Of a DNA stretch of 64,000 bases, positions 16,372 through 64,000 are shown one piece after another. The stretch is taken from the NCBI GenBank assembly GCA_030247885.1, contig JAPDRO010000001.1, forward strand, positions 1,240,001-1,304,000. The letters are read 5' to 3'. Within the stretch, counting starts at the first letter, position 1, and the number at the start of each line of letters is the position of its first letter. The position numbers and the translations under genes are program-made. The notes beneath the pieces are model-generated. The model had not been told where the DNA came from. It made no database searches and was given only the letters and a program-made list of their open reading frames with translations. This DNA is from Taxawa tesnikishii (nom. ined.) (lineage: Eukaryota; Ascomycota; Dothideomycetes; Dothideales).

Positions 16372-17907
16372 ATGTATCCAACACCGGCTGCAACTGGTCA
16401 GTGGACGCCAAACGGAGCTCCGCCTACGACACAACCGCAACAACACAGCCCATATCCTCCTCCGGCGCAGCAACCGCAACCACAAAACCCATATCCTCCA
16501 CCACAGGCCCAACACTGGAGTCCGCAACCGCAACATCAACAGCAGCCGAATGGCAACTACACTCAGAGGGCACACAACCCAAACCAGGTGCGTTCGTTTG
16601 TTGGGCTTGCACATGCCAATGGTCCTCTTCGAACGGCTCCCGTCTGACTCTTCGTTTGTAGATTCCTCCAATCTCCCAGGCAATCCCCCAAGGCCCACCA
16701 GCTATGACTACCCTCCAACCTTCGCATCCTGACCAATACCGTTCCCTCCCAGCGCCTCCACAGATGTACGCCGGACCTTACGTTCAACAGCCTCCGATGC
16801 CATATCCTCCACAGCCTGCGCCGCGCCAGCGCACTGCGATTGCATGCCGTTACTGCCGGAGACGCAAGGTACGCGATATAGTACCTCCATACTAAGAAGA
16901 AGAAAAGACAACTGAATATTACAAACAGATTCGATGCTCCGGTTTCGATCAGTCCGAAGACGGTCGCTGCACAAACTGCCAGAGGTTTTCACAAGAATGT
17001 GTGTTCACCCCAGTTTCCGCTCAGACCCAAGCCTTTGTACCAGCTGCGGCCCTGAACCGCTATCAGGGAGTTCAGGGAGGCCCGCCTCCACAGCTGTACG
17101 GTGCATACGGACAGCCTCTGCCTCAGGCGCATCAGCTTCGCGAACCGTACCCTCCTCCGCCAGGGCAGCAACCGCAGCAGCACCCATACCCGAACGGAGC
17201 ATACCAGAACCAGCAACCCGTCTACCAGCAACAACCTCCTGCCGGCCAGGCTCCGCAGATGCAGCCACAACAGCAACCGCAGCAACAGCAGACGCCACAG
17301 CCTCCTCAGCAGCAGCAGTCTGATCAGACCCAGCAAAACTCCACTCCACAATCCACTGCGGGACAGAAACGGCCAACAGATGAACCGCATACCCCTACTC
17401 TCCCTCCTCCGAACCCAGCGAACTCAGCCCAGCTCCCTCACCGTGGCTCATCTGACAATGCAAATGCGGTGCAATACACATACCCAGATCCTACAGGCCT
17501 GACTCCAGCTGCCGCCTCGCCTGCTTCTTCGACCACCAGCTACATCTCTGCCCAGCCAACAGCCCAGCCATACTACGCGCAAGCCGCTCCCCTCGTCGCA
17601 CATCTCCGCAATCCAGTTACTCGTACGATCAGTCCCGTACCTCTGCTTCACCGCACAACCTTGGCAACTCTACGCCAATCTACCAGCCACAGCCCAATAC
17701 CTCTGATCCATCTCTACGCCCTCCACAGCCACCAGTGCGCGCAGGTACTACTCCGCCGCCTAATAGCGCTCAGAGACAGGGGTCAAGATCAATGAGCTGG
17801 TTGGACCTAGCGGACAGCAGAACGATCAGCAGCAGCAAAACGAGAACGAAAGAGCTCGTAGCGCGGCTGATAGCAGTATGCTGAACCAGCTCGACAGGCG
17901 AATGTAG
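16372..17907 (+). CDS. Zn(II)2Cys6 transcription factor, reading frame broken twice
   Basis: Fungal binuclear zinc cluster regulator, nuclear. Exons 16372-16587, 16662-16868 and 16929-17907. The cluster CRYC-x6-C ... C-x2-C-x6-C lies around residues 127-160 and is split by the second intron after the RRRK stretch. Flanks are Pro/Gln-rich, with several poly-Gln runs. The long middle-homology domain is absent, so this is a short-type Zn2Cys6 protein. From about 17590 the coding signal moves to another frame (TSPQSSYSYDQSR) and at about 17780 to the third (ELVGPSGQQN to the stop at 17905-17907). Each shift is corrected by one extra base, at a CCCC run (17589-17592) and a GGGG run (17779-17782). 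With both, the protein is about 467 residues. No intron of plausible length explains the shifts. Confidence 0.85.
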
Positions 17908-18849
17908 GACACCCGTACAGTTCAGATTCCCACGAAGCCCTTTGTCAAACAGGACACCCCGAGGAACCGGCCTTTCGGAATGTTCTTGGGCAATCTAAAT
18001 CGGCGCAGCAGAGCAGGGCTGGCTGCTGCTCTGTCAGTCGACGCAGAGTACATAGTCGGGAAACGATGGTGGTGCTGGATCAACGCCACTCGTGTATCAT
18101 GCCCTTGAGGGCGAGATCTTGGCTTGCTCCTACTGGTGGTTTTTCTTTGAGGTTGCTGCTGCCTCATCGAAACTTTCTTCCTCTATACGATGATTGCTAC
18201 GTTTTTGGGCGGCTCTCTGTCTTTAGCCTTGCACTACTTTATCCCCCTATCGGTCCTGCGTTTGTTTTTGCTTTGCATCTGTCTCTCTCCAATCAATGCC
18301 TTAGTGCTTAGTGGAAAATCGTGTTTCTTTGTCTTTTCGAATGGCGTTGTTCAAGCAGCGTTGTTGGGCAACCGGGAGAATGCTCTACAATGGGTCGGCT
18401 GTCTCATTGTTTCACTGTTGCATTTTCATCGTGATTTTCCCTTTGCGAAAAATGGAGGGGCGGCTACTTTACTTTTTCTGGATAGATTCCAAACGTGAGG
18501 CAGCGGTGGGCGGTGTGCTGATAGCGATTGCACCGCTGCCATCACCATCACTGGTGTGGCTGTAAAACAGAGTTGTACATGTTTCTGTTCTCACTGTTGT
18601 CCCTTCGTCTACCCTATGCTGTGAATCCGCCTCAGATGTTCAGCATCGTCGCTCCTCAAGCGGCTGCAGTCTTCTTCTGTTGCGCTCCCTTGCCAGACTA
18701 GGTTCATCACCAAACATGATTCGCTCGGCTGTCCGCGGCTCTTCCAACATGCGAGAAGGCCGGTGGAAGTACAATGTAGCAGATATAGTAGTATAGCAAG
18801 TTTGTGAGGGCATACAAAGAAGCCTATTCTGACTACTCTTCCTAGTGAA
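17908..18849. other. 3' flank of the Zn2Cys6 gene; nothing identified
   Basis: T-rich plus-strand sequence, especially 18170-18560, with open frames made of Leu/Phe-rich shadows. It is probably 3' UTR and spacer. No motif or splice structure supports a gene. Confidence 0.35.
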
Positions 18850-19320
18850 CTCAATTACAATAAGAAGATGATACTTGACTACATATTTTTTGACGTATAG
18901 CTAGCGTTGATAGGTAAGTTAAACATGGCTAAAATAAATATTAACTACAAGTTCTCGGATTGTTAAGATGCTTAGATGCTAAGATACCGAGACCTTGATA
19001 TAACCAACTATTCCCCGCATTTCGGTAAGATTTCCGATTAGGCTCTCGACATTACGTGACAAACCTCAAGCTTTAACCTCTTATAAAATCTCGCAAAATG
19101 ACCATATAAACCTATAATAGTTAGGTTAGTTGCGTATTTAGTTGTGTTATAAGAGCGTTATAAAGAGGTATGCTTTACGAATCTTTTGGTACGAACAATA
19201 AAGCAAAACAACTGCTGTACTGCTATACTGCTACACCGAATTTTTGGCCTTATAGGTATTGCTACACTAAGGATAATGTAAATGTAGCATTTGCACTGCT
19301 ACACATGTAGCGGTGTGATG
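18850..19320. repeat. AT-rich, RIP-like island (probable decayed repeat)
   Basis: An abrupt compositional change: TpA and ApA/TpT steps dominate (e.g. AAAATAAATATTAAC) while the flanks are near 50% GC. There is no ORF. In ascomycetes such islands are usually transposon relics mutated by repeat-induced point mutation. No terminal repeats or transposase remains can be read by eye. At the right edge a short run of TGCTAC/GCTGTACTGC repeats is followed by a CTG run at about 19330-19345. Confidence 0.55.
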
Positions 19321-19816
19321 CCCACCCTGCTGCTGCTGCTGCTATTGTTACCACCGGTGCAGCCATTCATCGGCCATTGGCCAGAGTAAGGCCAACGCTC
19401 ATCCATGCTGCAGGCTGGCCGGGAAGAAGGGAAGCGAAGAAAGTAGATGTCGTAGGCATGCTCTTCAGGCTACAGTTACAACGATAGTGAGGATAGATAG
19501 TGCGGCCGCCGAGCTTTCACAAGAAACACCTCAGCGAGCCAAACCCCATCACATTCGCCTGCGTGATCTTGGCGCGTGTGTATACACGCCGTTCTCGTCT
19601 CTCATCCTGCAGACCTTGCTCTCACTCATCCTGCAAATCCTCTTGCATTGACAAAGCCCGCGTGCTGCGCGATCATCTGGATCCTGTCCTAGTCCTCGTA
19701 TCCAGTGCCGAAGTCGGAGAAAAGAAAGAACCCTTATCCGTTCTCAGCCAAATGGAACAGCTGGTTGATCCAGTAACGGTAGAGTACAACTGCTCCGCCG
19801 CCATGTGGGTAAACCC
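19321..19816. other. Spacer; nothing identified
   Basis: After a short CTG repeat the sequence returns to average composition. No supported gene is seen before the stop of the nuclease gene at 19817. Confidence 0.3.
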
Positions 19817-20738
19817 TCACCTGTAAACCGGTTTCAGTATTCCTCTCTTCAGCCACCGGGAAAGGCCAAGAGACGCCACTAGTCCCGGTATCGCGGTTCG
19901 TGCATCGATTTTCTGCCCGCGTAGTTTCGTCATTGGTCGTGTTGTAGCGTGCCACTTATCCCACGTGCTCTGTGGAACCAGCGCCAGCATCAGTAGCAGC
20001 TGCAGCGTATAGTAGGCGTCATTGCCCGCACAATGCCATCCGGGCAGTTTATACCTCATGTGAGAACCTCGGCGGGCGAAGTATTCCTTTCTCGTGTGCA
20101 GGTGCAGATACAGCGCCGACAGACTCTTCTGCAAGCTGGTGCCCGAGACCAGCATATTGGTATCGATCTGACCGACGACGTGCGGAAGTGCATAAGGATC
20201 AAAGTGTAATGAAGAAATCAGCACGTCGATATCTTGGTCAACACTGTGCCCGACCAGGACGTAGGTGCGGTCAGGTCCGTATTCCTCAAAGAGGCGCGCA
20301 AGCTGCACTTTTAGCGTCGCGCGGTCCACCGTTTGACTTCTGCCGAACAGAAAACTGATCCCCTCGGGCGGCACGCAAGCCGGGCGCGCATTCGTCGGGA
20401 TCTTGTAGTTCAGTGCGCGAATGTGGGGAAGCCAGTTGCATGCGTTTTCGCCAGGATCAATACCACGTACTGCGCGGGTGTCGAGGATGGCGACCCCGGC
20501 TTCTGTAAGACGTTTGGCGTCCGTGACCCATTCTTCGTCAATGGAGACGAATATCACGTCATGTTTGGGCCTGATGCTGGACGGGACCCAGGTGATGATA
20601 TCTGAGGGCTTGAGAGGGGAAGGCCCAAACAAGCACGAGCAAAATCGATGGGGAAATACTTCCTGGACTGAGGAGCGGGTGGTTGGCAACCTATCGGGAC
20701 GCGTATCGATTCTGCCGGTCTCGAAATGATGGAGTCAT
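19817..20738 (-). CDS. Gfd2/YDR514C-like RNase H-fold (DEDDh) nuclease domain protein
   Basis: Predicted 3'-5' exonuclease-like protein. A continuous frame of 291 codons (20689-19817) carries VIFVSIDEEW (first acidic motif), LDTRAV, WLPHIRALNY, VGHSVDQDIDVL (second acidic motif) and HCAGNDAYYTLQLLL (His-x4-Asp, third motif). These are the DEDDh catalytic residues in order. The frame has no ATG at its start. The best upstream ATG is at 20738, but it connects only if one base of the short A-run 20724-20726 (T-run on the coding strand) is extra; otherwise a first exon is missing from this model. The closest family known to me is Gfd2/YDR514C of yeast. The substrate is unknown. Confidence 0.75.
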
Positions 20739-21678
20739 TGGCCGGTCTAGAAACTGGAGGGTTGTTGTTTGATTGGAATCTGCCGCAGTCAGCATACCAT
20801 CCGGGTGCGGGTTACTATCTTATTTTAAGGATCCGGAAGAATGAGAAACCCCATGAAATAGCTGACGCACTTACGGCTGGGTTTGAGGGGATGCACTCTG
20901 TAGTACTTCCCTTAACCTTTTCAACCCCAGAGTCCGACGTTCTGCCTTCGAAGGTTTGCCTGATGATACATTGACGGCGGTGCTCAATCTCGATTCGAAG
21001 ACGGGGTGCTCCTGTCGCCACGGCGCAATGATACAAGCACGAACTCGCGGTCTAGTAAAGAACGCGCATTGTTGCGGGGCTCTCATCTACCAGAGACGAG
21101 GCAACAAAATCCCGCCTGCGTGCGACGATGCGTAGAGGAGATCAGGATGGCAGACAGAGCCAAAGTCGTAATACCAATTGAAGTGTAAGAGACGCTAGTC
21201 GTTCGATGAAGTCTAACCCGTTCGAGTTAAAGGCTAAAGACGAAATCTTTTACGGCTAAACCCCATGTGGCACGTCTATCATGTACATATAAAAGCCCGC
21301 GCTACGTCTTCCTTGATCTGCTTATGAACCGTAGAAGAAAAACAGTTGAGCGTGCAAAAGATGCGGGTTGAGAGCATCGGTAGGTACGGTAGGTGGGCTA
21401 TGTACCATTGCTCGACTCATATGACAGGTCAAGACGGTACGGCCTTACTTCGTGCTGCCTCCCGACATGGGGGAAGCACACTTTGACAATCGCGCCTCAT
21501 GGATCCCGCAACCTCCACGCCTCCAGTATTTTGCTCACGCTGGGCTACTATGGATCTTGCTGGTCTGTTGAAGAAAGCCACACATTACCAGAAGCATGAT
21601 AGGCTGGTGAAATACTCGCTTTGGATGCATGCAGGACATGTTGGGGAGGTAAATATTGTTCGAAGTACTTGATCTACT
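20739..21678. other. Spacer, nothing firm
   Basis: It holds the 5' region of the nuclease gene and the 3' flank of DER1. An open frame on each strand around 20730-21040 looks like a shadow. A TATA-like ATACATATAA... element falls near 21280-21295 on the plus strand, but no gene follows it. Confidence 0.3.
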
Positions 21679-22879
21679 TTAATCACCCCCAAGCCTCCTC
21701 CCAGGCCCTCTTCCTCCCCAAGTGCCACTACTGAACCCGCTCGTCCATCCACCAGTACCACCAGTGGCGGCTGTCTGGTTGCGCGTTTCTGCAGGTCTGC
21801 TCTGGAACGCCGTACCAAACGCCCTCTGAGTGCCAGCACCTGATGGCTTGACGAACCACCTCCGAATGGCCTGCGGTGTACGTATTGGGTTGTTTCCACC
21901 ACCGAACGTCGGCCAGATGCGGGTCAGGAAGTCGTACAAGTGCGCAGCAACCAGGCCAGTAGCTTGGTGCAGTGCTTCGATTGGCGAACCCATGACGAAG
22001 GTCATGAGTAGCATGGCGTACGGCAGGTACTTGACCTGGAAGGTCACAATATAGAACGTCATTCGGCGGTTTGGGTTATCTTGGGCATAAGTGTACGCCA
22101 AAGCCAGGATGAGAGGCTGCAAGAAGAAGACCGATTGCAGAAGGAATCCTCCGGTAAACTTCCTACATGTCAGCGAGTTGTTCACACAACAAGCAGGCAA
22201 TGCCAGTGTATGAAGATATGTAGGGAGCCAAAACCACCGCAGAACAACAGTTGTTGAGCAGTTCTCTCAAATGACGTTCCCACCATGCCCACACTCCACA
22301 CGAACCCTGTAAGGATTTGCGAATGATGGATCCGGTACAGTGCAGGGGTGATCTTCCTCGCTTCCAGGAACCGCTTCAGCTAGAATTGGGCTGTGCGGGC
22401 AGATATTCGAGGTTTTGGGTACAATGCGAAACAGGTTTATGATGTGCGAAGGAACTCATGTGAAAGGGTGCAATGTAAGGAAAGGAGGATATGTCCTTAC
22501 CAGGATGACGCCGGCGACGAAGAGGAGGTATACCAGGAAATCTCCAGGCTGGCTGAACCGGCTCGACTCAGTCTCCAACGCGCTCGCGTATGTCCAGATG
22601 AAGTATGGGTCTAACAGAATGCCCAGTTTGGGGCCCGTTACGAAGAAGGGAGTGACAAGGCGCCATAGCTGTGGTGTCCAAAGTTTAAGGACGGCAGGCC
22701 GGATGAACACGACATAGTAAGGACTAAGGATGCCGCTCCATACGACGACGGAGAAGGCGACGGCGCCGGCTGTGAGGGTTCTGCCATCAGCATCAGAGGT
22801 GTGGCCTGGTAAAGAGGGAAGGAAGCTTCGCGTACCTGGTGACCGGCGGGGCGGCCCAGAAGAGGTCCATAGCAGACAT
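21679..22879 (-). CDS. der1: Derlin (DER1-like) ERAD membrane protein
   Basis: ER membrane rhomboid pseudoprotease acting in retrotranslocation of misfolded proteins (ERAD). Exons 22879-22836, 22780-22501 and about 22158-21679 (about 267 residues). Exon 1 encodes MSAMDLFWAAPPVTR. Exon 2 gives the first membrane spans and the derlin hallmark LWRLVTPFF and DPYFIWTYASALE. Exon 3 has FLLQPLILALAYTYAQDNP-type sequence, KYLPYAMLLMTF and the lumen-loop/final spans, then a Gly/Arg/Trp-rich tail. Introns 1 and 3' sites are GTACGC/CAG; for intron 2 (GTAAGG donor at 22500, about 342 bp) the acceptor after AGGAAG at 22159 keeps the frame but is not certain, and a small exon inside this long intron is possible. 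Divergent from LYS9. Confidence 0.85.
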
Positions 22880-23597
22880 GACGATGTGGCTTGTGGTGAA
22901 AGAGATGGTGCGCGGTACAGCACTGTATCTACACAGCACAGTACAGGATGGAAGAGTTCAGGTCATGGTGCGCTGTAGTGGTGAAAGAAGTATATGCAAT
23001 GACAGGTTGCACGGGGGCTTTTGTCGAGTCAAGCACTGCCAAAAAGCCAGCTCACCCAGATGCGATGTTTGCTCGGTTTGATCCGCGGCACGTGACTGAG
23101 ACGTGTTTATAATGATGACAACTCGGCATCGTATCATAGTCAAAGGGCTGGCTCGCTTCGTTGTAGTTAGCTTCGTAGGACATGACACCAAAGGCGTCCA
23201 TTAGATAGATGGCAGTAGAACGAGACCTGTTCCAAAGCTGCAACGAAGATTGCGGGCATGTAATGTTCTCGTTGGCTTGCAACAGACGCCTATCTACCTG
23301 AGAGCGCGGGCTACCGTCATCATATTAAACAGCAAATGATCCACAGCGATGTCGGCCAGATGCGGCTGGGCGTGTCGATTACCTACGTCCGAGTGAGGTA
23401 AGTGGGGGTTGCGTGCGGGACGGGAAGAAATGTTGGTTGTGCAGTCAACCGCTGCAAGTGCCTTGAATCGTTGTACGACTCACATCCTGATTCTGCCCTG
23501 TACACTCCACTCCTACCTATTCTTTTCCTTACGATTGATCAACTTCAATTGACACGAACACATACGCATACACAATTTCTCTCCAAAAGCCGCCAAG
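22880..23597. promoter_or_regulatory. Divergent promoter between der1 and LYS9
   Basis: A 718-bp head-to-head spacer. A CACGTG E-box occurs at 23089-23094, and a CGACTCAC sequence near 23476-23483 is one mismatch from the Gcn4/CpcA site TGACTCA, which would fit cross-pathway control of a lysine gene. The last 60 bp before LYS9 is CA/CT-rich. The assignments are inference. Confidence 0.35.
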
Positions 23598-34033: not shown

Positions 34034-34037
34034 TAGA

Positions 34038-37962: not shown

Positions 37963-39669
37963 ATGGTCGGAATCGCTACCGTCAGCGGGCGCGCCCCAAG
38001 GGGCAACCTCGAGCTTGCTCAAGCCGAGGCTCCAGAGTTTGAATATGTCAACTGGAGAAAGCAACCCAATATGATGAAGTTGTACTTTTGGTGCATCATC
38101 CTCTGTGTTGCATCTGCTACCACCGGCTACGATGGGTGAGTCGGGTTAACTCAGCGATATCATACCGACTTATCTGGCTAACACACGAACCAGCATGATG
38201 ATGAACAACTCCCAGAACATGACATACTGGAACAGTCACTTCAACACGCCGGATGGTTCCCGCTTGGGTCTCATGAGCAATGCTTACAACCTTGGTTCCA
38301 TTGGCTCCTTCTTCATCGTTCCATACATTGCCGATTGGTTCGGTCGCAGGATTCCAATCGCCGTCGGATGTATCATCATGATTGTTGGTGGTATCATCTC
38401 AACCTTCGGCAAGGACTGGCAAACGTACCTCGCTGGTCGACTCATCCTTGGTTTCGGTAACTCTATGGCACAAATGTGCTCCCTATCTTGCTCACAGAGA
38501 TCGCCCATCCTCAGCACCGTGCTAGATTCACGTCTGTTTACAACTGTCTATGGAACTTGGGAGCCCTGAGTAAGAAAACCTGGTCGGCTCCGCTATCATT
38601 GTTTTGCTTACCATGTCTCAGTCTCGTCTTTAATCGCGTTTGGATGTCAATATATTCCCAACAACTGGTCCTGGAAGACCGTTACCCTCCTCCAAATCTT
38701 CCCATCCGTCATTCAGCTCGCTTTCATCTGGTGGATCCCAGAATCTCCAAGATGGCTCATCAACAAGGACCGTGCTGAGGAGGCTCTCCAGATGCTTGCT
38801 TACTACCATGCCGCTGGTGATGAGAACAACGCAACTGTCCAATTCGAATTCCGTGAGATTAAGGAGACCATGCGCCTGGAGAAGGCGGCCGACAAAGGCT
38901 CCAGCTACATCGAATTCTTGAAGACCAAGGGCAACCGCTGGCGATTGGCTATCCTTATCTCCCTCGGTATCATCTCCCAATACTCTGGTAACGCCCTGTT
39001 TTCGAACTACTCCAAACTGATCTACGAGGGCGCCGGAATCACTGGAGCCGGTCAGGGCTTGGGTCTCAACATCGGCCAGACTAGCCTCTCCCTCATTGTC
39101 TCCATCTACGCCGCCACTCTCGTTGACAAAGTCGGCCGTCGCCGCCTCTTCCTGATCGGTACTACCGGAATGGTCGTCATGTTCACGCTTTGGACCATCA
39201 CCTCGGCAGTTTACGAGAACTCCGGCAACACGAACACATCTGCTGGGATTGTCCAGATTCCCATCATCTGGATCTTCGGTATCTTCTACGCTATCTCATG
39301 GTCCGGCCTCCTCGTCGCCTATGCTCTTGAGATTCTCCCTTCCGTCTCCGAGCCAAGGGTCTTATGATCATGAACATCACTGTCCAGGCCATCTTGGCTA
39401 TTGGTAACCAGACAAATCCTATGGCCTGGAAGAACCTTCCTAAGCACTGGAACTTCACATTGTTCTACACCATTTGGATCACCCTGGAACTTATCTTTGT
39501 CTACTTCGTCTACGTCGAGACTAAGGGACCCACTCTCGAGGAAATCGCCAAGATCTTCGATGGCGAAGACGCCGTTGCCCACATTGACATTAACGAGGTC
39601 GAGAAGGAGGCCTACGTTGCGCACCACGAAGAGAAGATGCTTCCCACTGAGACCGTCACTCGTGTATAA
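37963..39669 (+). CDS. MFS sugar transporter (hexose/lactose permease-like), frame broken twice
   Basis: Plasma-membrane sugar/H+ symporter, 12 predicted spans. Exons 37963-38135, 38194-38569 and 38622-39669; 532 residues if two missing bases are restored. Motifs in order: TTGYDG at the end of span 1, DWFGRR loop, GRLILGFGNSMAQM, PILLTEIAHPQHR, PESPRWLINK, ISQYSGNALFSNY, DKVGRRRLF and VETKGPTLEEIAKIFDG. The frame slips at a CCC run (38481-38483) between AQMC and PILLTE, and at a CCC run (39337-39339) between EILP and FRLRAKGLM; one added C at each place restores family sequence. No stop or substitution elsewhere suggests decay. Confidence 0.9.
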
Positions 39670-45908: not shown

Positions 45909-48774
45909 CTACCCCTTCAATGCCGCGGTACTGGTGCTTGCAGTTCTCCGGCCGCCCCAGAACCATCCTCCGCTCTTGGGCGCCACGAGCTCAGGCGTGC
46001 CAACAGGGCTCTGTCGGGGGCTCCGGTTTCCAATTTCAACCCCTCCCGTTGTAGCCCTCGAAGAGGATAGCGACGCGATTCCTCCTGGCGTGGGGTTGTT
46101 TCTGGCGGCACGCAGTTCAGCCGCATGAGCCTCCATCTGCGCCGCCATCATCTTCTCTACACTGTCCAGCTTGGCCTGGGCCTCGGCGGCTTGAGCGTCG
46201 AGCAAGCGTCGCATGCGATCGAGCTGCTGCTTCATCTCGTCACGCTCGAGAATGGCAGTTGCTTCGCGCGTCTTGGCTGCAACCAGCTCGACGAGCAGCG
46301 CTTCCTCGGCCGGGGGCTGATGGGCGGGTGTCGAAAGGACGGCTTGCGCTGCCAGGGATGAGGTACGCTTTGAGAAGGTGCCCGCGCGAGGACGGTTATC
46401 ACGGGAGATGGGCTCCGAAAGCGCTGGCCGGAGGTTTGTGTCAAATCCACTCCGGTAGCGATGGTGGGGAGACCGATGAGGTCAAGTGAAGACCGCCTTG
46501 ACGGATTTGCAGACTGGCTGTCTTGTTGAGTGTTGGCTGCCTGTTGTTGTTGTTGTTGTTGCCAGTTGCGGTAGCCCGACAGTCGGCGAGGGACGACCGG
46601 AAAACGCAGCCCTCCGGATGACTTTGCCCGACCGGCTTTCTGCTCCAGACGGAAGGCCTGCAACTTCGTATGCATGGACTGCATGCTCTGATTGTGCAGC
46701 TGTGACCGCGTGCGCACGTGTTTTCTTTGCGCTCTAGTCAGTTCTGCCTCCAAAGCATGCGCGCGGGCCTCCGCCGCTGCCACACGGTCATCTGCGGCCT
46801 TGTCTTCATCCGAGAGCCTCTTGGATATCTCTTCTTCTGCATCCAGAACGATGCTCAGTTGCGTGAGAGAGTCTTGAAGCGGCCCATCAGAAGTGTCTTT
46901 GACGCTCTCGACAATTCTTTGGAGATCCCCACGCTTGTCATCGACAACATCTTTGACGCTGCTGGCTCTCTTGTGAAGGATACGTCCAGGCAATGTCCGT
47001 CTACGCTGTCGGGTCACGGCGTCCACGGCATCCTTCTTGCGTAGGAGCTTGACCAGATCGGCGAGGCGGCTCTCCAATTCTTCTTTGGCTTTCTGTTCAT
47101 TCTGCAGCTCGGCGATGGTGTCCGCGTGCTGACGCTGAACCTCGCTCATGGCTAGCAGAAGGTCTTCCACTTGCTCGTGCATCCTCTTGTCTTCCCGGTG
47201 AATAGTCCTGTTTGATTTTCTACGCTCCAGACCACCTTCAATCTCAGTGGGCGCCGTACTTGTGTAACTGTCGGTGCTTGCCAGAGTGTCGGTACCACTT
47301 GCTCCGGAAATTGAGTTGAGGGTGGCTAGCGACTGCTTAGAAGCTGACCTCCGCAGAAATCCAGGTGACCCTTCGAACTGCGGTGCTTCGGGTGACAGGC
47401 TTGCTGATTTGGTCGACGGTGCCCACAACCCATCCAAGAATTTCGAGGCTTTCAATTGGAAGCTTTGGCCAAATCCTAGGGAGCGTACAGTCTTGCCAGC
47501 TCCTTCCACTTCCGTCTCTGCGATGAAGCGCTCGTGAAGCTTCTCAAGAACTTCACGCGTAGCAACACGTTGAACTGTCGTCACTTCTTCGATCAACCGA
47601 TCAGCCTGCCCCTCATATTCTTCCCAGAGGTCGTTGCTGAGTAACAGCTTGACAACATCTTCAAGTTCCGTCATCTCGAGAAGCTTTGCTTCGTTGCGCA
47701 GGATAACAGCGAGCGCCACGCACATGATGACTTCGTTGGCGCTTTCCGCAAGCATGACGTCGTAAATACGGAAAAGAATTTCCAGAGGGCAGGTTGTAGC
47801 GAATATTGTAAGGAACCACTGTGAAAGATAGGCGAGTTCCACGCCCAGGTTCTGGAAGTGGTCGACAAGAGTTGGAGACAGTGTTGACAACAGCCGCTTA
47901 AATTGGTAGATGCGGGAGTGGAGGCCGGAGAGAGATGGCAGATATAGCGTGCGAAGACCTTGATCTCTCATTAACCTGCGCGCACCGTGTTAGCTAAGCA
48001 GTCAATCGTACACAGATCGGCAGGAAAATCTTACCTGACCAGGATACAAAAAGCGTCTCGTTCCGGCATGTTCATGAGGAGCGCTCCAACTACGAAACCC
48101 ATTCCCTGGCAGTATCCGATCTCGGGATCGTAAAGGCTGTAGCATCGAAGTACCCTCCCGAGCGATTTCTGGCCATGGCCCTCTGGGTCTTTGAACATCT
48201 CGATATTTGGGTATGTGCGAGCCAGGTCCTTGCTGATGGTGCTTTCGCAAGGCGAGTATTGATCAACGTATCGGTCATAATCTGCGGAAAGAGCGGCATC
48301 CCGTGCTCCGGCCAACGCGACCCAGACGGCCGACCTGAGAATGTATGGAACACCTGCGCGAATCAGGTGAGGCGTGATCGTCGGCAATTGTCGCAACGCT
48401 TCCGGGTAATCCTTTGTAACAAGGAGCCAGAAGTCCATCAGCTTCATGGGCGGCGGCTCGTTTGGATCGCCAGGTGACACGAATGCCGGGGACGGGGATT
48501 GCAGTCTGGCCTTGGGATCGATAGCCAAGGCATTGTTTTCCTGCTCCAGGCGGGCTAGAAGTTGTGTCATGTACTGTAGAGCATTTTAGTCCGCAGTGCT
48601 AGTCTTCTGCACTCCGTTCCTCACCTCGTCCGTCTCTTCGGCCTCTCCATCGTCTTGTTTACCGGAGTTCTCCTCATAGATGGAATCATCCCAGTCCACT
48701 GTATTGCCATCAGTCTCAGTGAGTGGCACGCTGACCAGCGAGTCAGTCGGCCTGTGGCCTGTTGGAGTATCCAT
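45909..48774 (-). CDS. TBC-domain Rab GTPase-activating protein (Gyp5-like)
   Basis: Stimulates GTP hydrolysis by Rab proteins in vesicle traffic. Exons 48774-48625, 48573-48035 and 47975-45909; 918 residues after one base is restored. The acidic N-terminus precedes the TBC domain (about 90-330), with IRSAVW-type start (ILRSAVWVAL), the catalytic arginine motif ISKDLARTYP and the glutamine motif IGYCQGMGF both intact. A coiled-coil C-terminal half follows, with a poly-Gln run (about 46536-46556), as in Gyp5. Near the AAA run 46418-46420 (TTT on the coding strand) the frame slips; beyond it SSLAAQAVLSTPAHQPPAEE and MKQQLDRMRRLLDAQAAEAQ continue to the stop. A 35-bp GT-AG segment could also mend the frame but is too short for a normal intron. 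Confidence 0.88.
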
Positions 48775-49807: not shown

Positions 49808-49830
49808 CAGCTCAGCTCAGCTCAGCTCAG
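49808..49830. repeat. Pentanucleotide repeat (CAGCT)n
   Basis: Four full CAGCT units plus a partial unit in tandem. Confidence 0.8.
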
Positions 49831-53064: not shown

Positions 53065-54236
53065 ATGATGTCCAGCAGATCCAACATGTCTGATGAACAC
53101 ACATCCACGGCTCTTGAAAAGAGAGGCCAACTTGAAGGCACGCCAACTACTGTGCCCAAACACAGGCAGGAAGAAAGAGGAGGAAACGAGACTGTCACTC
53201 GCCTGTACTCTGACCTGATGGATGTGGACATCGAAGGAGGTAAGGCCGTCCTCATCCAGAACTGCCATGGTGACTATCAGGTGCACGATCTGGTCATGAC
53301 ACTTCAAAATCGCAGAAGGGAGCTCCAAGGACAACCGTACCCAATCAAGCCAATTGGAGGTTCTGGAGCAACTTACCTATTCGAAGGGAGTGTCCTGCAA
53401 GGAAAGGGGTCGACAGATCTCAAAGGAGTGGTGATACGCTCGACCGTCAGCATAAGCGGAACGGAGCTTCAGTACACGATACCAGGACTGAAGGACGTCG
53501 ACGTGCAAAAGGGTCTGGAAGCAGATCCCCTGTACGAGCTGACCGAGGTGCGCAACAACACGCTCAAAGATCCGAGAGGGAAATGGGAAGGGAAAGAATA
53601 TCCCGACAACGTGTTTGTCACTTACGGAGAGCTCGCAGTGCCCGAGTTGAGGAAGCTCATCGGACAGCGCGGCATTGCTCGCCGCCCTCTAACCAGAAAA
53701 CAGGAGATGATCGAGGCCCTTGAAGCGCACGACCGTGAGAAATACCGCGCACAGAACGATCATCTCGAACCAACGCTGGCCTTGGCCGGAACCCAGCCAC
53801 AGAGCGAGGCCACTCCCGTCTTGACCGCGCAAGAGATGCACGACGACATTGCGGCAATGCTCGGCGCCCCCGCAGATCTCGCCGACAGCGCGTCAGGAGC
53901 CCCCACAGCGCCCCCATCCTCATCCCCATCCCTTTTCCAGAACGCGACAGCGGACTCGGCCCACACGGACGCAGTCTCCGCGGCCGAAATCCCACGGAGT
54001 CGCTGGCCGAGACCTACCTGGAAGGCGCCCGCGACATCATCATCCCATTCAAGACCCCCCGTTCGCCCTCGGCTCCCGAAATCGAGCCGTTGAGCCCACG
54101 CAGCGGGGCACCTGCGTCCTCGTCCGAGCCTAAGCAGGGCCGCAAGCGAGGCGGGGCCGTGATGGCGGAAGGTGAGTTTGTCGAGACGACCGGTACGCAT
54201 GCGATGCGGACGAGGTCGAAGAAGGCTCGCAACTAA
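53065..54236 (+). CDS. SAP-like domain hypothetical protein with one frame slip
   Basis: A 390-residue protein if one base is restored. Start at ATG 53065 (MMSSRSNMSDEH). The middle holds VFVTYGELAVPELRKLIGQR with RPLTRKQEMIEALEAHD (about 190-235), which fits a SAP helix-extension-helix motif that binds DNA. The C-terminal third is Ala/Ser/Pro-rich; after the AAA run 53987-53989 the coding signal continues in the next frame (ESLAETYLEGARDIIIPFK to the basic end TRSKKARN). No short intron explains the change. Probable nuclear protein; function unknown. Confidence 0.65.
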
Positions 54237-55619: not shown

Positions 55620-55789
55620 TGCTGATGGTTATCGACTGAAACCCATGTGCCGGCACTGGTGTTGGTATAGCAAATTGGCGTGATTGGGCGTTTCTCCATG
55701 GCCGGATTTAGCGTTTAGCGAATGGCCTAATTGGCGTAGGATAGCCATGACTTATGTCGTGATGAAGCGATGGGTTTGCCGACACGGTT

Positions 55790-56616
55790 TCAGCCCATCT
55801 CCTCGTGTAGTGCTGCCCATGCACTCCTTTGCTGCTCCTTCCTTCTTCTCGCCGACTCGTCCTCGGCTTTCTGCTGCCCCTGCTCGACTCCAACCTGACC
55901 TTCCCCATTCTGCTCCCCCAGCTGTTGCATCCCTTTCAACATTCCCCTAATCCTCTCCTTCGCATCACCGACTCGCTGCACTTCACTCCTGACCCTATCC
56001 AGCTGCTCCTCCATCATCAGGATCAAACTCTCGCGCGCCTGATGCGGTCTGTACCTGTTGATCAGATCGTGCACGTTGTAAAACAGATGCGACAAGTGCT
56101 CCAGCTTCTCCGTATACTGCTCCGGGTTAACGCTAAGAATGCCGACTAGCTCGAGGAAGTTTGCTAGGATGGAGCGCGTCAGGCTGAGCAAGTGCGGTGA
56201 CGGGTCCGGATGCGAGGGTGCGATGGCACGGTCGGGATAGAGCTGGGGTTTCCCGGCAGCTTCGAGGGTTTGGCTGGGTTGGGCGAGCTGATGAGCATAT
56301 CAGTGAGCGTTCGAAGCAGTACAGAGGCGACACGTTGACGCACATCGTGTCTAACTCCGAAACTCTTCCATTTCCCTTCTGCTGGTGGTTCGGGTGGGAC
56401 GAGATAGCGGAGTTCGAGAGGAAGCGAGGGGATGTCTATATGAGGTTCGCCTCGATCGTCACCGTCGACTTGCTTCTGTGAGGCGTTTTCCTTGCGCAAC
56501 TGGCGCAGCGCAGACTGGTTCTGCTTGGTGAAGTGCTTGTAGAAGGGCGGTGGTCTTGGGAATGTAGCTTTGGGCACGCGCTTGTTCTGCTGCGCTTGCT
56601 GTTCTTGCTCGGCCAT
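55790..56616 (-). CDS. MED7: Mediator complex subunit 7
   Basis: Middle-module subunit of Mediator, bridging activators and RNA polymerase II. Exons 56616-56344 and 56287-55790 give 256 residues. Exon 1 has the typical start with FPRPPPFYKHFT and LPLELRYLVPPEPP, ending SFGVRHD. Exon 2 continues LAQPSQTLEAAGKPQLYPD and SLTRSILANFLELVGILS, then YTEKLEHLSHLFYNVHDLIN and RYRPHQARESLILMMEEQL. The 56-bp intron (GTGCGT/CAG) restores the frame exactly; without it there seem to be two frames. The tail is a charged helix. Confidence 0.93.
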
Positions 56617-56851
56617 TGTTGCGGACGCGGTTGATCAACTTCCTTCAAAGTCCGACATACAGCTGATTAGGAGACTGTACAAGATGTGCTTAGGATTGTG
56701 AAGTATCGAATGTTGGACTGGAATTGGGAACGGCCGAGGCGCGAAAGTGAATCTGGGGAAGCCGGGGATAGAACGGATGTACAATTCCAAGTCCCTATTT
56801 CTACGCGATGTATTCACTTCCGTTGACACAAACCATATTCCCATCAGAGGA

Positions 56852-58057
56852 ATGCCCGGATCTGAATCACACTTTGGCTCTCGAAAACCCAGGGATCTGT
56901 CCCAGGATGGCGGCTTCCTGGGTGCGGTCTCCAGGTTCTGGCAGGTAAGGCTTGCGCCTACCCCGAAAGTACCATGAACCATATACCAAATCACTGATGC
57001 TCGTACCAGCAATCCTATGCTCCAGACTACCTCGGCCTCGTCATCCTCTTGGCCGCCTATATGCTGATGCAATTCCTCATGGAGCCTTTCCACCGCATGT
57101 TCTCGCTAGACGATCGAAGGATACAGTTCCCGCATGCTGAAGTCGAGCGTGTGCCTGTATGTATGTCACGGACACCTTGATGTCAGGGAGAGAGCAGAAC
57201 TTGGCTAAGAGCTATCGTCGGCAGCCTGGTTGTTCGTGTATGCAGGAGCGATACCGTTAGGCATTTTGGCAGCATGGGCAGCCCTTCTCAGACCCGAGTT
57301 GCACAAAGCACACGTTACAATGCTGGGGCTTTTGATCAGGTGCGCGCATACAAGACTTTCCGGGTTTTCTGTTCTCGGTCTGACTGGTGCCAGTCTCGTA
57401 CTCACGTCTTTTGTGACGGACGTGATCAAGAATGCGGTCGGCCGCCCGCGACCCGACTTGATCGCACGCTGCAAGCCCGTAAGGAATAACATCTCTTCCC
57501 CCTGATCGCCATCCACAAGCTCACATGCAAACCAACAGGAGCTCGACACACCACGAAACGAGCTCGTCACTTTCAAGGTCTGCACAGAGAAGGACCATCA
57601 CGTTCTTCATGATGGGTGGCGTTCGTTCCCCTCGGGTCACAGTTCCTTCGCCTTCAGTGGACTAGGCTATCTGGGTTTCTTCTTCAGTGCGTCCCCCCCC
57701 CTCCTCCACGTTCTCTTACCGCTTCCTGCTGACCCTCCTCTCCTAGTCAGCCAAATGCACGTCCTCCGCCCACGTGCTGATCTCGCCCGCGTCATGATAG
57801 CATCCGCACCCTTTCTGGGCGCCATGTTGATTGCCATCTCGCGGCTCGAGGACTACCGCCACGACGTGTTCGACGTCGTGATCGGTTCCTCTCTGGGCTT
57901 CGCGCTCGCGTACTTCAACTGGAGACGCTACTACCCTGCCCTATCATCCAGGCAATGCGCGACTCCGCATCCCAGTCGAGCAGATCCCAGCCCAAATGGT
58001 GCAGGATTCAGTCGGGTCAGGGACGAAGAGGAAGCGCTAAATAGCGCGCGAGTATGA
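56852..58057 (+). CDS. PAP2-family lipid phosphate phosphatase (Dpp1/Lpp1-like)
   Basis: Integral membrane Mg-independent phosphatase acting on phosphatidate, lysophosphatidate or diacylglycerol pyrophosphate. Exons 56852-56944, 57010-57160, 57225-57339, 57394-57478, 57539-57686 and 57747-58057 give 300 residues with intact frame. All three signature motifs are present: KNAVGRPRP (K-x6-RP), PSGHSS, and SRLEDYRHDVFD (SR-x5-H-x3-D). Six hydrophobic spans can be seen. A further in-frame ATG at 56777 would add 25 residues; the shorter start fits the family better. The lysophospholipase gene follows tail to tail. Confidence 0.93.
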
Positions 58058-58156
58058 GTTGGATGAGAGCGAAGAGAGGTATTCGATGTCGGCAGGGGAA
58101 GCCGCGCATAGATGTCGATATTATTCGATTCTTGAAAGCATAACATCGTTAGCCGA

Positions 58157-58175
58157 GACGCCTCGGCGAGGCGTC
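58157..58175. terminator. Perfect inverted repeat between convergent genes
   Basis: GACGCCTCG and CGAGGCGTC, 9-bp arms with a single central base, in the 240-bp gap between the PAP2 and lysophospholipase stops. It could fold as a hairpin in either transcript. A role in transcript ends is inference; fungal terminators do not need hairpins. Confidence 0.35.
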
Positions 58176-58297
58176 ATTTTCTATCTACATTTTGCGTCAT
58201 GGAGAAACGCCGTCTCCGACTCCCCATATACATTATATCCAACGCTATGCACAAGCGAAAAAAAGCAGTTATAATAGTACAATCCACACTTTTGTAT

Positions 58298-60307
58298 TTA
58301 CAGCAACAGCATCATCGCCGCTGCGAAGGCAGCCGACAATGCAAACGTAGATCCCGTTACATGTCCCGCGCCGCTCGTGACCTTGAGCTCCTTGAGCTTC
58401 ATTGGTGGCGTGTAGTTGGCGATTCTCGAATCAACAGTACCGTTCCAGCAATATCTGTCGAAACAAGTGTTGCAGACGTCCGGCACTGGCGTGTTCGTCC
58501 TGTTCAAGCTGCGGCTCAGGATGGCACAAGCGACGCAAGTGGGCCACTGGCCGTCGACGGTCCCGTTGCCCATGGTCACGACATCGTAGCCGTTCTCAAT
58601 AGCTGCGTTGCGCTCGGTGTTGTTGTAGCTCGGGTCGAAGGTTGAGAAGTTGGATGGGTAGACGTATGGCGCATTGGGAAGGTAAACGACAAGTGGGGTG
58701 GTGTGCGTCGTGTTGCTCGGATCGCAGCCGAAGAAGGTGGGCCGGGTGTTCAGGCCGAGGTTGACAAAGGTCTGCTGGTCGGGCACGGCGGGGAAGGAAG
58801 TGCCGTTGGCGATTGGCAGCATGCTGCGCTCGTAGGTGGCGACGAGACTGGTACCGTTCGGCCAGTTGGCATAGCCGTTCTCAGCCGTCGTGTCGGCGGA
58901 AGAGTCCACTGCGAAGATCACGTCGACGTGGCGGTCTGGTTGAATCAGGGGTGAAGTGGGATGTTCTGCAGGTCCTCACCGCCGTCAACCAAGGTCAGCA
59001 TGTTAGAATCGGCGATGTGGCTGGTCTCGTTGTTGAAGTGCCAAAAGGGGTTCGGGTAGTCCGCGATATCGTCATCAGCTCTTCCGACATCCGTCAAGAC
59101 GTTCTCCAAGGCGTCCTGCAGCAGTTGGGGGACGCCACTAACGCCGTTGATCTGCAGCAGGAACTGGTTGAAGAGGGTGGAAGATGTTCCCATCACGAAA
59201 CCTGCGTTATCGAAACCTGCGATGCACTGCTGGTTGTCCACGACGGAGCCCGCGCTGAAGTTGGTACCAAGGTAGCGAAGCGGCGCGAAAGCGTGAGTGG
59301 TAGGGTCCCAGGAACCCAGCTCCCACGGGTTGAACTCATAAACAGTCGCATTGCCATCGATTACCACCTCCCCAGGAGCGCGTGCGTCGCTGACCAGAAT
59401 CGGCATGGGCGTGTTGCCCTGGGAGAAGTCGGTGTCTTCTTGGATCGAGGAGAAAGTGAAAGCCGGGCCACCGTTCGTCGCATTGACAAGCTGGTAAGAA
59501 AGGGCACGTCCCCAGTAATCCGTGATAGTGACGTTGAAGTGGTCACCTTTATTTCCGACTTCGTCCTGGATGGTGGCGTAGTATCCTATCGAGTCCAGCA
59601 GTTGAATCTTGCCTGTTGCAGGTCCCTCGAAGATGGAGTTGCTGAACTGCCAAACCGAGCCGGAGTCTCCTTCATTGAGGATGTTCTGCACGGATGTGAA
59701 GTTGTTTGTAAAGAGAGATCCCACAAGCCATCCACCGCCACTCAGGCCGGCAAGATAGGTGGCAGATTGCAGTAGACCTCCCAGGTGGCCGGCCCCGGTC
59801 GAGTTGTTTGTGCGACTGTCGAATGCGGCAATGGCGCCGGCGCCGTTCATCAAGGCTCTGTAACCACCTCCGGACACAGCGATACCGATGTTTGGCAGAG
59901 CGCTGGCATTGTTGCGGTTGTTGTCGATGTATGAATTTGTGTCCAGTCCCGTCACATTCAGACGACCCAACAAATCTCTCATAGCAGCCACGGTGTTGTT
60001 CCTCCGAAGCTCGAGCCATGCCGTCTCGTTGGCGGAGAGTGCGGCAGCATTGCGAATAGTAGGTCGGTCAGACGGGCAGTCTACTGCGGCGGGTGTATAT
60101 CCGTCTGGGGCTTGGGGGTGGCGCGCTTTGCGGCAATGAGAGGTGCTGCGAGGACTTCAGCGGCAGCCTCTTCTGGAGTCGGGTTGCGAATTACGACGGC
60201 GCCTGCGAAGATGGTTAGCGTGCGAGAGGAACGGGAGATGGAGGACTAGGCATACCATATGCTGCCGGAAGCAGAGCGGAGGCAGAGAGCAGGCCTGCAA
60301 ACTTCAT
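58298..60307 (-). CDS. Secreted lysophospholipase (phospholipase B), frame broken twice
   Basis: Fungal PLB-type acyl hydrolase that removes fatty acids from phospholipids, cell-wall or secreted. Exons 60307-60256 and 60202-58298; 652 residues after two bases are restored. A signal peptide ([18 protein letters not shown]) leads. Motifs: [11 protein letters not shown] (oxyanion arginine, about 124-134), the nucleophile GLSGGGW (about 170-176), and the catalytic Asp in [14 protein letters not shown]-glycosylation sites are frequent. The C-terminus has a hydrophobic tail typical of GPI attachment. The frame slips at a five-base G run (60114-60118) and a four-base G run (58948-58951, immediately after NIPL); one extra C on the coding strand at each restores family sequence such as [15 protein letters not shown]. 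Confidence 0.92.
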
Positions 60308-61086
60308 CCTGTCTAAGAAAACTGAACTGAGACGGCAAAGAGGCGGGAGGGTGCAGCATCGTCTTCTGGGGATTAAAGCGATTGATATATCAATCGAAGG
60401 CGCGGCTGAGACGGAAGCAAACGGCAGGCTGTGACGCTTGCCCAAGATTGTGCTGTTCCCACCCTTATTTGGCATGACGTACATGGAGACATTTCGAAAC
60501 CGCAATACACTCCATCCCTGCCCCGAGGCGCAATGGGTTGGCTTATAGTCGAACACCGGCCGTGCTTGCCATGCACCGTACTGTACGTCTCCTTAGTAGC
60601 GAACACTCGACAAGATACGTCCTCTTCATCTCAACTTCTACGCATTATCATTCTTGTTCTCGTTCTCATGCACAGTTCACGCACGCGACAGCAAAGTGTG
60701 CCCCTTGCAATCCTGCATCTCCATAGCGATCCCGCAGCCTAGTGCTAGAATAGTTAAGCTTAGCGGCAGATCTTTCATCTTGCATCTGCCAAATTAAGCC
60801 AAGCCCACAGCCACTCCGTGCACCCGTCTCAGCCTCAACTGCTCTCCCAGGCCGCCCGCATTCTAATCCGAGAAAAGTGGCCCCCCCCCGGAAGTATCTG
60901 TTGCCGGACACAGCACAGCAGCTTAGAAATGCGTTCAGAATTTGCGCTCGAGCATTCAACATTATCCACTGTCTTCTATCGACGATACGATAGAATAGGA
61001 CCTCGGCATCGCAAGTCTCATGCCAGTAAGAACTTGGTGATATTGTCCCCTTGTTCCTACTACCCACGACCTTTCATGCCCTCCTT
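60308..61086. other. Promoter region of the lysophospholipase gene
   Basis: 779 bp between two minus-strand genes. Contains a run of nine C at 60883-60891, likely hard to sequence. No supported gene. Confidence 0.35.
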
Positions 61087-62449
61087 CTAAGCTCTTCCAA
61101 TCCTAACTGGCACGTTTCTCCTTCCCTTGCTGCTCCTCTTCATACCCTGGCTCATGCCGACATCTCTCTTGAGCACCGGATTGTCATTGAAAATGCTGCC
61201 CGGGCCGAAGTCGGGAGTGCCGCCGAGCGTTCCAAAGATGTCTCCTACGTAGTTGCTGGCATTGACGCCCTTGGCGAAAGTGCTGTTCCATCCGTCCAGA
61301 ATTCCTTGCACGACCTCTCTTCCGGCCAGGTAGATGTTCTGGATTGCAGGCTCGAAGGCGCCTTGCTCGGCGTAGAACAAGTTGAAAGTCGCGGATTCGC
61401 CGGCATATGGACGATCGAAGTCGGAGGCGGTGCGCATGATAATGATGCGGCTGAAGTCGACAAGTTTCTCGACAGCGGCGCGGAGCATGGCCTCAAGGGT
61501 GGCGTTGTCCTCTTGCGCGGTCGTGCAGTACACGCCAGAGCCGTTGGTGACCAAGTGTGTGTAGTTGCCAAAGGCGCTGCTCAGGATGCTGCCAGAGTAG
61601 TAGACGTCCGAGGTTGCAACATCGCACTCGTAGACTTGAGGCCTTTGAGCTCCCGCGGCGTACATCTCAGATGAAGCGTAGTTGGCCCTGTAGGCAACGG
61701 CATCGGCGGAGTCGTTCAGGGCGGCTTTGCGCGCGAAGTTGGCTGCAATGCTGCGAAGGTTTTGGTTTACTTCGAAAACCTCAGTTCCGTAGATGGACTG
61801 CGCTCGTTAGTCACCGATCCCGATCAGCATGTAACCAGCCCTACCTGGGGATACTCGTCTGGAACTACTGAGCCTTGCGGCACGTAGCCAGTAGAGAAGT
61901 TGCCAGGAATTTCACGAGGATCGAACTCGTATTGAAGGGCCACTTGAACGGCGTAACGAGCGAACGTGACCGAGCAGATCGTAGCTACTTCTGGGTTGAC
62001 ACCTGCAATGCCTGCGATCATGAAATATGTGGTTGTCAAGTCAAAGCGAGGACTCCGAACAAGAGAGGCGATCGTGACCGCAGCATTGATCTCTGCGAGC
62101 AAGCATCAGCGTTCTGTTCGTGAGTGTATAGCTCCTCCCAAGACGTACCACTCTCGCCTGTAGTGAGCTGGCAGATGTCTCCGTTGGCAGTGCAGTGAGC
62201 ATCCGGAAACAGAGGCGAGAAGCCAGGCACGGTGACGTTGAGGGCGTTCAAGTCGAATTCCGGAATGCCGTACCAGACATCGGCCTCGGGCGCAAACATG
62301 GAGATGATGAAGACCTTTGGCTTGACCACATACTCCAAGGCTCTCTCTTCCACTCTGGCAACGGCAGCTGGCTTCTTGGGCACAAGGCCAGCCGAAACAA
62401 CAGCACTGAGGCCCACGAGAGTAGTGGCAGCAGAGAGGGAGAACCTCAT
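61087..62449 (-). CDS. Purine nucleoside permease (NUP family)
   Basis: Uptake of purine nucleosides, or a periplasm-like secreted binding protein of the same family. Exons 62449-62149, 62092-61845 and 61797-61087 give 419 residues, intact frame. A signal peptide (MRFSLSAATTLVGLSAVVSAG) leads. Family blocks: KVFIISMFAPEADVWYG, FDLTTTYFMIAGIAGVNPE and TFARYAVQVALQYEFD with PREIP, then PQSIYGTEVFEVN, and RTASDFDRPYAGE near the end. Introns of 56 and 47 bp have GTACGT/CAG and GTAGGG/CAG. It stands upstream of the lysophospholipase gene on the same strand. Confidence 0.9.
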
Positions 62450-63363
62450 CCCGACGGGAAGAATTGAGAAGCAGAGGGAAGCTTTCTTGGGAGCACAGCA
62501 ACAAGAGAAGAATGGGAGACGGCCTACTCTTCGCAAGCTACCCTGGCGAGAGCTGCAACTTAAATGTGTTTCCTGCACCTAAACTCCAGGTCTATCGTGC
62601 CGGGGCTCACCAATGGTGTGGTATTCAGCGCGAGTCCGTGCCAGTGACATTTGCTAGCACGCACGCGATGTCGCTGCGAACCTTTTTTCGTGGTGCAGAG
62701 CGTCATCGTAGCTATCGCGAGCTTTCGAGCTGCCGACAAAGCACTAGTGCCCATAGATAAAGCTGCAGGCACAGATAACGACATGGGCTTCCGGGCTATT
62801 CGGCTACCTTGCGTGGTGGATGCACGGCCTTGCCTGTTTATCGCGCAGGTTGGCTCGACATGTAGGATTCGCCTTCCGCGTTTTTGCTTTGCCAGGAGCA
62901 CACCAGCAGGCGGAGGTGCTCTCGTATGCTCTCGTGTTTGTACATGTTGTGTGCGCTCTGCAAGCCTACGAGAGATCTGCAGTTGCCGTTGATCCCGCAG
63001 TGGAGCCGGACACTAACCCGAAATGCTTGACCGGGAAACTGCCAGCCTTCTTGTCTCCCCCAGCCGCTCTCTCTCTCTCTCTGAGAGTGCAGGTCGTCGG
63101 CCATCCATTTTCATCAACCCGACTACGTACCGCTACATGGACTACAGACACGCCCATCATCAAGAAACATGGCACATTTGTATACATTACTGCGTCCGAG
63201 GTCCACAGACTGACTGGCATTGAGTTGCAGACGAAGACCAAAGAGAGAGTGTGTGCTTCCATAGCTTCGCTGTGCCGCGTACGTATATCCAAGGTCTCGA
63301 GGCCTTCTGTTAGTCATCTCGTTCGAACCCGATGTGCTATTTCCTCTACTGTCGATCGAACAT
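62450..63363. other. Divergent spacer between the NUP and HET genes
   Basis: 914 bp head to head. A short CT-repeat (TCTC, about 63067-63081) is visible. No supported gene. Confidence 0.3.
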
Positions 63364-64000
63364 ATGGAAGGTGCGGAAACCAGTCTGTGCCGATGTTGTC
63401 GGGCACTGTCCCTGAGTGTGAAGGACTTTATCACTCCGTGTATCGCGACGGCGGGGTACTTGCGACCGTCGAGACCACTACTCGAGGATACTCCTGGCAA
63501 CTTAATGCAGAGACAATCATGCCCATTATGCCGTCTCATTCTGTTCAATCTAAGCCAACACGAACGGGGAGCATTGCCCGTCAGAGAGACCGTATGGGAC
63601 CTGAGATGGTTTGTTCAGAATCCAGAGTACGACTGGCAAAACGGCCAAGGATCTGCTCTATACGCGAGTTTTCGGGGCTCGCCCCCAGGAAGCATATGTT
63701 GTACAGGATGGAGCTGTTCGAGCTGTTCGAGCATCGGGACACTGTTCGGCTTCTTCGACCACGAGCCGTCAATGAAACCGGTATCGACATCGACCAAGTG
63801 AAAGCTTGGATCCACCGTTGCCAAAGCCTGCACAGCAAAGCTTGCGAGGAAAACATCTTCTTCAAAGGGTATACTGACAAGCAACGCTATTCGTTCTGGA
63901 TCGTTGATGTACGGAACCAGTGTTTGACTAGGATCGGACGAAGGCAAACCTACCTTACGCTGAGCTATGTCTGGGGCACGACAAATAACGTTGCAACAGG
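63364..64000 (+). CDS. HET-domain protein, N-terminal part (cut by the right edge)
   Basis: Heterokaryon-incompatibility type protein; many trigger cell death on contact with a different strain. The ATG at 63364 (MEGAETSLCRCCRALSL) opens an N-terminal region with CPLCRLIL and a polar stretch, as common in these proteins. From about 63690 the frame moves to one with MELFELFEHRDTVRLLR, IDIDQVKAWIHRCQ and finally the HET-domain start TYLTLSYVWG. One extra base at the five-C run 63682-63686 would join them. The rest of the HET domain is outside the window. An N-terminal intron is an alternative. Confidence 0.75.

What the first reader, a model, noticed from the sequence alone, without database searches (positions are those of the whole stretch)
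16372..63800. Recurrent single-base gaps at homopolymers break conserved genes
Nine one-base shifts were read directly: two in the Zn2Cys6 gene, two in the sugar transporter, one in the TBC gene, one in the SAP-like gene, two in the lysophospholipase gene, and one in the HET gene. Every case needs one inserted base at or next to a run of 3-5 identical bases (most often C/G), and the protein families continue immediately beyond. Genes between them (LYS9, ARS2, NUP, PAP2) are intact. This fits homopolymer under-calling in the assembly better than independent pseudogenisation, and would make automatic annotation split or truncate these genes.
Basis: partly seen in the sequence, partly recalled or inferred. 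Interest (0 to 1): 0.7.

Follow-up and report, generated by a model that had tools for sequence, protein, structure and literature searches.

The report
Assembly gaps at short homopolymers
Several fungal genes in this window look broken because the assembly most likely dropped one letter from short runs of the same base, so the breaks are probably sequencing errors rather than biology.

Summary
Of nine claimed one-base shifts, three are shown by Pfam profile joints with an excess of exactly -1 base and no room for an intron, three more are supported only by codon statistics, and three rest on reading. Eight other window joints are intron-sized.

The fault is not confined to the window. Five joints elsewhere are also one base short (four exactly -1, one -1 modulo 3), among them one of nine Cpn60/TCP1 loci and one of three Rpb2_6 loci. 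All eight profile-spanned shifts go the same way, and their runs are longer than in random coding DNA (P=0.0016). C/G runs of 6-8 are depleted outside called coding sequence.

Homopolymer under-calling in the assembly explains this better than pseudogenes, introns or recoding. Against it: A/T runs of 7-8 are not depleted, three of eight joints hold only a run of 3, and no reads were available, so platform and cause are inferred. A nanopore-only fungal assembly with similar faults is published (PMC7500977, passages).

The parts
38470..38482 (+). Sugar transporter, frame joint 1: one base short
   Evidence: Pfam Sugar_tr positions 24-123 then 120-152 in another frame, excess -1; longest run in joint +-8 is 3; not called by the HMM
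39337..39343 (+). Sugar transporter, frame joint 2: one base short
   Evidence: Sugar_tr 153-381 then 380-452, excess -1; HMM short at 39354
38570..38621 (+). Sugar transporter, ordinary intron (control joint)
   Evidence: excess 52 nt, GTAAGA donor and CTCAG acceptor
58948..58960 (-). Lysophospholipase, frame joint in the catalytic domain: one base short
   Evidence: PLA2_B 1-314 then 311-491, excess -1; same in the genome search; HMM short at 58960
60080..60130 (-). Lysophospholipase, N-terminal frame joint
   Evidence: HMM short at 60094; frames read; no profile spans it
46400..46480 (-). TBC-domain gene, frame joint in the C-terminal part
   Evidence: HMM short at 46445; no profile spans it; the joint inside the TBC domain is an intron, excess 59
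53900..54020 (+). SAP-like gene (label from reading), frame joint
   Evidence: HMM short at 53992; no Pfam match to either piece
17570..17610 (+). Zn2Cys6 gene, first frame joint
   Evidence: reading of three frames; not called by the HMM
17750..17800 (+). Zn2Cys6 gene, second frame joint
   Evidence: reading of three frames; not called by the HMM
16588..16661 (+). Zn2Cys6 gene, probable ordinary intron (not a shift)
   Evidence: GTGCGT...TGTAG, frames read on both sides
63640..63700 (+). HET-like gene (label from reading), frame joint
   Evidence: reading only; no Pfam match to either piece at E<=1
61090..62578 (-). NUP gene, intact with two introns (control)
   Evidence: excess 56 and 47 nt; the HMM shift call at 62102 is therefore false

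Best explanation
The assembly is one base short at a scatter of short homopolymer runs, because base calling or consensus under-called run length and the contigs were not fully corrected with accurate reads. Each missing base in an exon breaks the frame, so conserved genes look split. Shown: one-base-short joints in conserved domains inside and outside the window, uniform direction, association with longer runs, depletion of C/G runs of 6-8 outside called coding sequence. Inferred: the sequencing platform, and that reads would show the longer runs.
For: Window: three joints with excess -1 against eight intron-size joints of 47-345 nt. Genome: of 46 joints in ten families, 36 have excess 44-410 nt, 5 are exactly -1 (one of them the window's PLA2_B), 1 is 11 with overlapping frames (-1 modulo 3), 3 are unclassified (14, 26, 38), 1 is a nested alignment, none is +1. 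Broken loci include one of nine Cpn60/TCP1 and one of three Rpb2_6. Codon HMM: 24 short against 2 extra in 98 kb called coding (with the earlier settings 32 against 6). Planted deletions and duplications are found equally well, 151 of 251 and 158 of 257. E. coli K-12, 50 kb: three short calls, each within 20 nt of an annotated gene overlap. Run context: P=0.0016 for the eight joints; HMM short calls with a run >=4 within 12 nt, 10 of 24 against 17.5% at random (P=0.005; the 24 include at least one false call). C/G runs outside called coding: 93 of length 5, 4 of length 6, none of 7-8, 7 of 9-16. Similar fault in nanopore-only Drechmeria assemblies (PMC7500977, passages).
Against: No reads, second assembly or transcripts. 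Three of eight joints hold only a run of 3 within 8 bases. A/T runs of 7-8 outside called coding are not depleted (11 seen, 9.6 extrapolated), and over all 254 kb runs >=7 are not rarer than a fourth-order extrapolation. In the AT-rich stretch L021 A/T runs >=7 are 0 against 15.8 under independence but only about 4.5 under a second-order model. In 50 kb of E. coli C/G runs of 6 are rare too (14 of length 5, 1 of 6, 2 of 7), though numbers are small. The Drechmeria passages report more over-prediction than under-prediction after polishing. Shift density differs: 3 in about 10.6 kb profile-matched in the window, 5 in about 107.6 kb elsewhere, but the window was picked for its shifts.
Confidence: 0.93

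Rival explanations
1. Independent pseudogenisation: the genes are really inactivated by one-base deletions in this strain.
For: One-base deletions at short runs are also a common natural mutation (general knowledge). Sugar transporters are a large family here (323 candidates, 9 scored) and PLA2_B has another locus in one open frame, so these genes could be lost.
Against: The same lesion sits in one of nine Cpn60/TCP1 loci and one of three Rpb2_6 loci, numbers that leave no spare copy. Conserved domains continue on both sides. Direction is 8 of 8, whereas decay should also give insertions and larger lesions (inference).
Confidence: 0.03
2. Missed introns: the frame changes are spliced out.
For: Many frame changes in the window are introns, one in the Zn2Cys6 gene and one in the sugar transporter among them. 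The HMM mistook introns for shifts in NUP and, with earlier settings, in Med7. For the six claimed places without a spanning profile an intron is not formally excluded.
Against: At the eight profile-spanned joints the two frames overlap on the DNA (gap -4 to -28), leaving no space for an intron. Of the other 45 classified or unclassified joints, 44 have an excess of 14 nt or more: 36 and 8 are intron-size.
Confidence: 0.03
3. Recoding: ribosomes or RNA polymerase slip at short runs and restore the frame from a truly shorter genome sequence.
For: Uniform direction and location at runs would be expected.
Against: C, G and A runs are involved. C/G runs of 6-8 are depleted outside called coding sequence too, which recoding does not explain. 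Signals around the joints were not tested.
Confidence: 0.01

Closest known systems
Homopolymer length errors in nanopore-only fungal assemblies (Drechmeria coniospora, PMC7500977; passages read)
   Same: Reading frames of conserved genes altered by short indels, mostly in homopolymers, with error rates that differ between genes and genomes without a clear pattern
   Different: There, errors after polishing were more often over-prediction; here all eight profile-spanned errors are one base short. Platform here not known
Systematic nanopore errors addressed by Homopolish (PMC8011154; search listing and start of abstract only)
   Same: Systematic errors that remain after consensus
   Different: A correction method for microbial genomes; not compared here

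Membership tests
Homopolymer under-calling in an assembly | Errors are one-base deficits, not gains | tested here: met
   8 of 8 profile-spanned joints, seven exactly -1 and one -1 modulo 3; 24 short against 2 extra by HMM
Homopolymer under-calling in an assembly | Errors lie at longer-than-usual homopolymer runs | tested here: met
   P=0.0016 for summed run length, 5 of 8 with run >=4, 3 of 8 with only a run of 3
Homopolymer under-calling in an assembly | Affects needed single-copy genes alike | tested here: met
   Cpn60/TCP1 and Rpb2_6 loci; that they are needed is general knowledge
Homopolymer under-calling in an assembly | Long runs depleted also in non-coding DNA | tested here: inconclusive
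   C/G runs of 6: 4 against 17.5 and of 7-8: 0 against 3.9; A/T runs of 6: 20 against 34.3, but A/T 7-8: 11 against 9.6; no accurate fungal genome for comparison
Homopolymer under-calling in an assembly | Accurate reads show the longer run | not testable with these tools
   no reads held
Pseudogene | Dispensable or duplicated gene | tested here: not met
   Cpn60/TCP1 and Rpb2_6 loci carry the same lesion; for the window genes themselves dispensability was not tested
Spliceosomal intron | Intron-size DNA between conserved pieces | tested here: not met
   frames overlap, gap -4 to -28, at the eight profile-spanned joints; the other six claimed places could not be tested this way

The most novel reading that the evidence does not exclude
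The genome really has the shorter runs, and this fungus restores reading frames across many genes by frequent slippage at short homopolymers.
Probability: 0.01. Interest if true: 0.9.

Novelty: not a real feature. Interest (0 to 1): 0.12.

Why it matters
Automatic annotation of this assembly will split or truncate genes and may report false pseudogenes or losses. The check used here needs no reads: profile joints with an excess of -1 base, read together with the run-length spectrum outside genes.

Tried and rejected
The codon HMM alone is not proof. Its settings were changed between (38 calls, 32 short and 6 extra, became 26, 24 short and 2 extra). Its call in NUP and one in Med7 (56270) are introns by the profile joints. 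It missed four of the nine claimed places, one of them profile-confirmed (38470-38482). It calls only about 98 of 254 kb coding, finds about 60% of planted changes, and called 11 introns in intron-free E. coli DNA. Two paper searches for an assembly of this size found nothing; the organism was not identified. E. coli is a weak control for fungal run lengths. Six-frame reading of 16001-21000 gave one Pfam family, none at the Zn2Cys6 gene. L021 (AT-rich) was left out of the HMM and of the pooled run count and treated apart. Three joints (14, 26, 38 nt) and one nested alignment were left unclassified. Two family searches scored only part of their candidates (Sugar_tr 9 of 323; AMP-binding 14 of 75). 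A Pfam search on an L022 stretch failed and was not pursued.

Full report
What was claimed. Nine one-base shifts at short homopolymers in six genes of a fungal window, read as assembly under-calling. The window is C1:1240001-1304000 of an unnamed 29.37 Mb genome in 34 contigs. The organism was not identified; that it is a fungus follows from the gene families seen.

Checking the places. I used pairs of neighbouring pieces in different frames that match consecutive positions of one Pfam profile. The excess is the DNA distance minus the distance expected from the profile: an intron gives tens of bases, a missing base gives -1. Eleven window joints could be scored. Eight are intron-sized (47, 52, 52, 56, 56, 57, 59 and 345 nt). 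Three are exactly -1: Sugar_tr at 38470-38482 and 39337-39343, and PLA2_B at 58948-58960; all three are among the nine claimed. Three more claimed places have no spanning profile but were called one base short by a codon-statistics HMM: TBC about 46445, SAP-like about 53992, lysophospholipase N-terminal part about 60094. The last three (two in the Zn2Cys6 gene, one in the HET gene) rest on reading the three frames. One frame change in the Zn2Cys6 gene, at 16588-16661, reads as an ordinary intron.

Is it genome-wide? Ten families were searched in the whole genome and used for joints: 109,134 matched bases (some counted twice where alignments overlap) and 46 joints. Thirty-six joints have an excess of 44-410 nt. 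Five are exactly -1: one Cpn60/TCP1 locus, one HSP70-family locus, one Rpb2_6 locus, one SNF2 locus, and the window's PLA2_B. One more SNF2 joint has excess 11 with overlapping frames, which is -1 modulo 3 and would fit four extra residues plus a missing base. Three joints (14, 26, 38) are unclassified and one is a nested alignment. None is +1. The Sugar_tr search scored 9 of 323 candidates and gave no joints, and AMP-binding scored 14 of 75, so the count is a lower bound. Myosin, tRNA-synt_1, kinesin and AMP-binding joints showed no shift. Nine Cpn60/TCP1 loci (besides one partial match in a long frame) and three Rpb2_6 loci were found, the number expected from general knowledge of eight CCT subunits plus HSP60 and of three nuclear polymerases, so the broken ones are probably sole copies.

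Direction and context. The eight profile-spanned shifts (three in the window, five outside) are all in the short sense (two-sided sign test 0.008). The longest runs within 8 bases of the joints are 3, 3, 4, 4, 4, 4, 5 and 3, in sum 30 against 22.7 for random coding intervals (P=0.0016); five of eight have a run of at least 4 against 1.3 expected (P=0.004). Two of the five outside joints have a run of A as the longest.

Statistical check. The HMM was trained on the window and 19 stretches of 10 kb (L021 left out). It called 98 kb coding and 24 short against 2 extra shifts; earlier settings gave 32 against 6. Eighteen of the 24 short calls lie in 10 of the 19 stretches, six in the window. At least one of the six (NUP, about 62102) is false: the joint there is an intron of 56 nt. 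Planted deletions and duplications were found at equal rates (151 of 251, 158 of 257), and introns misread as coding should give both senses about equally (my inference), so the asymmetry is not a detection effect. In 50 kb of E. coli K-12 the method made three short calls, each within 20 nt of an annotated gene overlap, and called 11 introns that cannot be real.

Run-length spectrum. In 254 kb (window plus 19 stretches) C or G runs number 133 of length 5, 5 of length 6, none of 7-8 and 7 of 9-16. Outside called coding, C/G runs of 6 number 4 against 17.5 extrapolated (P about 0.0001) and runs of 7-8 number 0 against 3.9; A/T runs of 6 number 20 against 34.3 (P 0.006), but A/T runs of 7-8 number 11 against 9.6. 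Over all 254 kb, runs of 7 or more are not rarer than a fourth-order extrapolation. In the 23% GC stretch L021, A or T runs of 7 or more number 0 against 15.8 under independence, but only about 4.5 under a second-order model. E. coli has 14, 1 and 2 C/G runs of length 5, 6 and 7 in 50 kb, too few to judge by. I take the C/G gap at 6-8 with survival of 9-16 as the strongest part of this evidence; no accurate fungal genome was at hand for comparison.

Verdict. Homopolymer under-calling in the assembly fits best. Pseudogenisation fails on the needed, probably sole-copy genes; introns fail on geometry at the eight joints; recoding does not explain the spectrum outside genes. A like problem is described in nanopore-only assemblies of Drechmeria coniospora (PMC7500977, passages read), although there over-prediction was commoner after polishing. 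The platform used here is not known. Shift density looks higher in the window (3 in about 10.6 kb profile-matched) than elsewhere (5 in about 107.6 kb, less the window's PLA2_B pieces), but the window was picked for it. Base-level corrections are left out on purpose.

Noticed in passing
L021 (C1:100001-110000): AT-rich stretch, 23% GC, against 50-56% in the other 19 stretches; no homopolymer longer than 6.
   Followed up: partly
window 22152-22498 (-): DER1-like gene: 345 nt between consecutive profile positions, far longer than the other seven intron-size window joints (47-59 nt).
   Followed up: no
window 57693 and 60881; also L022, L025, L028, L033, L034, L036, L039: Runs of 9-16 identical bases survive although C/G runs of 7-8 are absent and of 6 rare in the 254 kb; the one at 57693 lies in what I read as an in-frame intron of the PAP2 gene.
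   Followed up: partly
L037 (C29:300001-310000): 500 N bases, which suggests a fixed-size scaffolding gap.
   Followed up: no
window 16001-18000: Strong GC skew (-0.30) over the proline- and glutamine-rich Zn2Cys6 gene.
   Followed up: no
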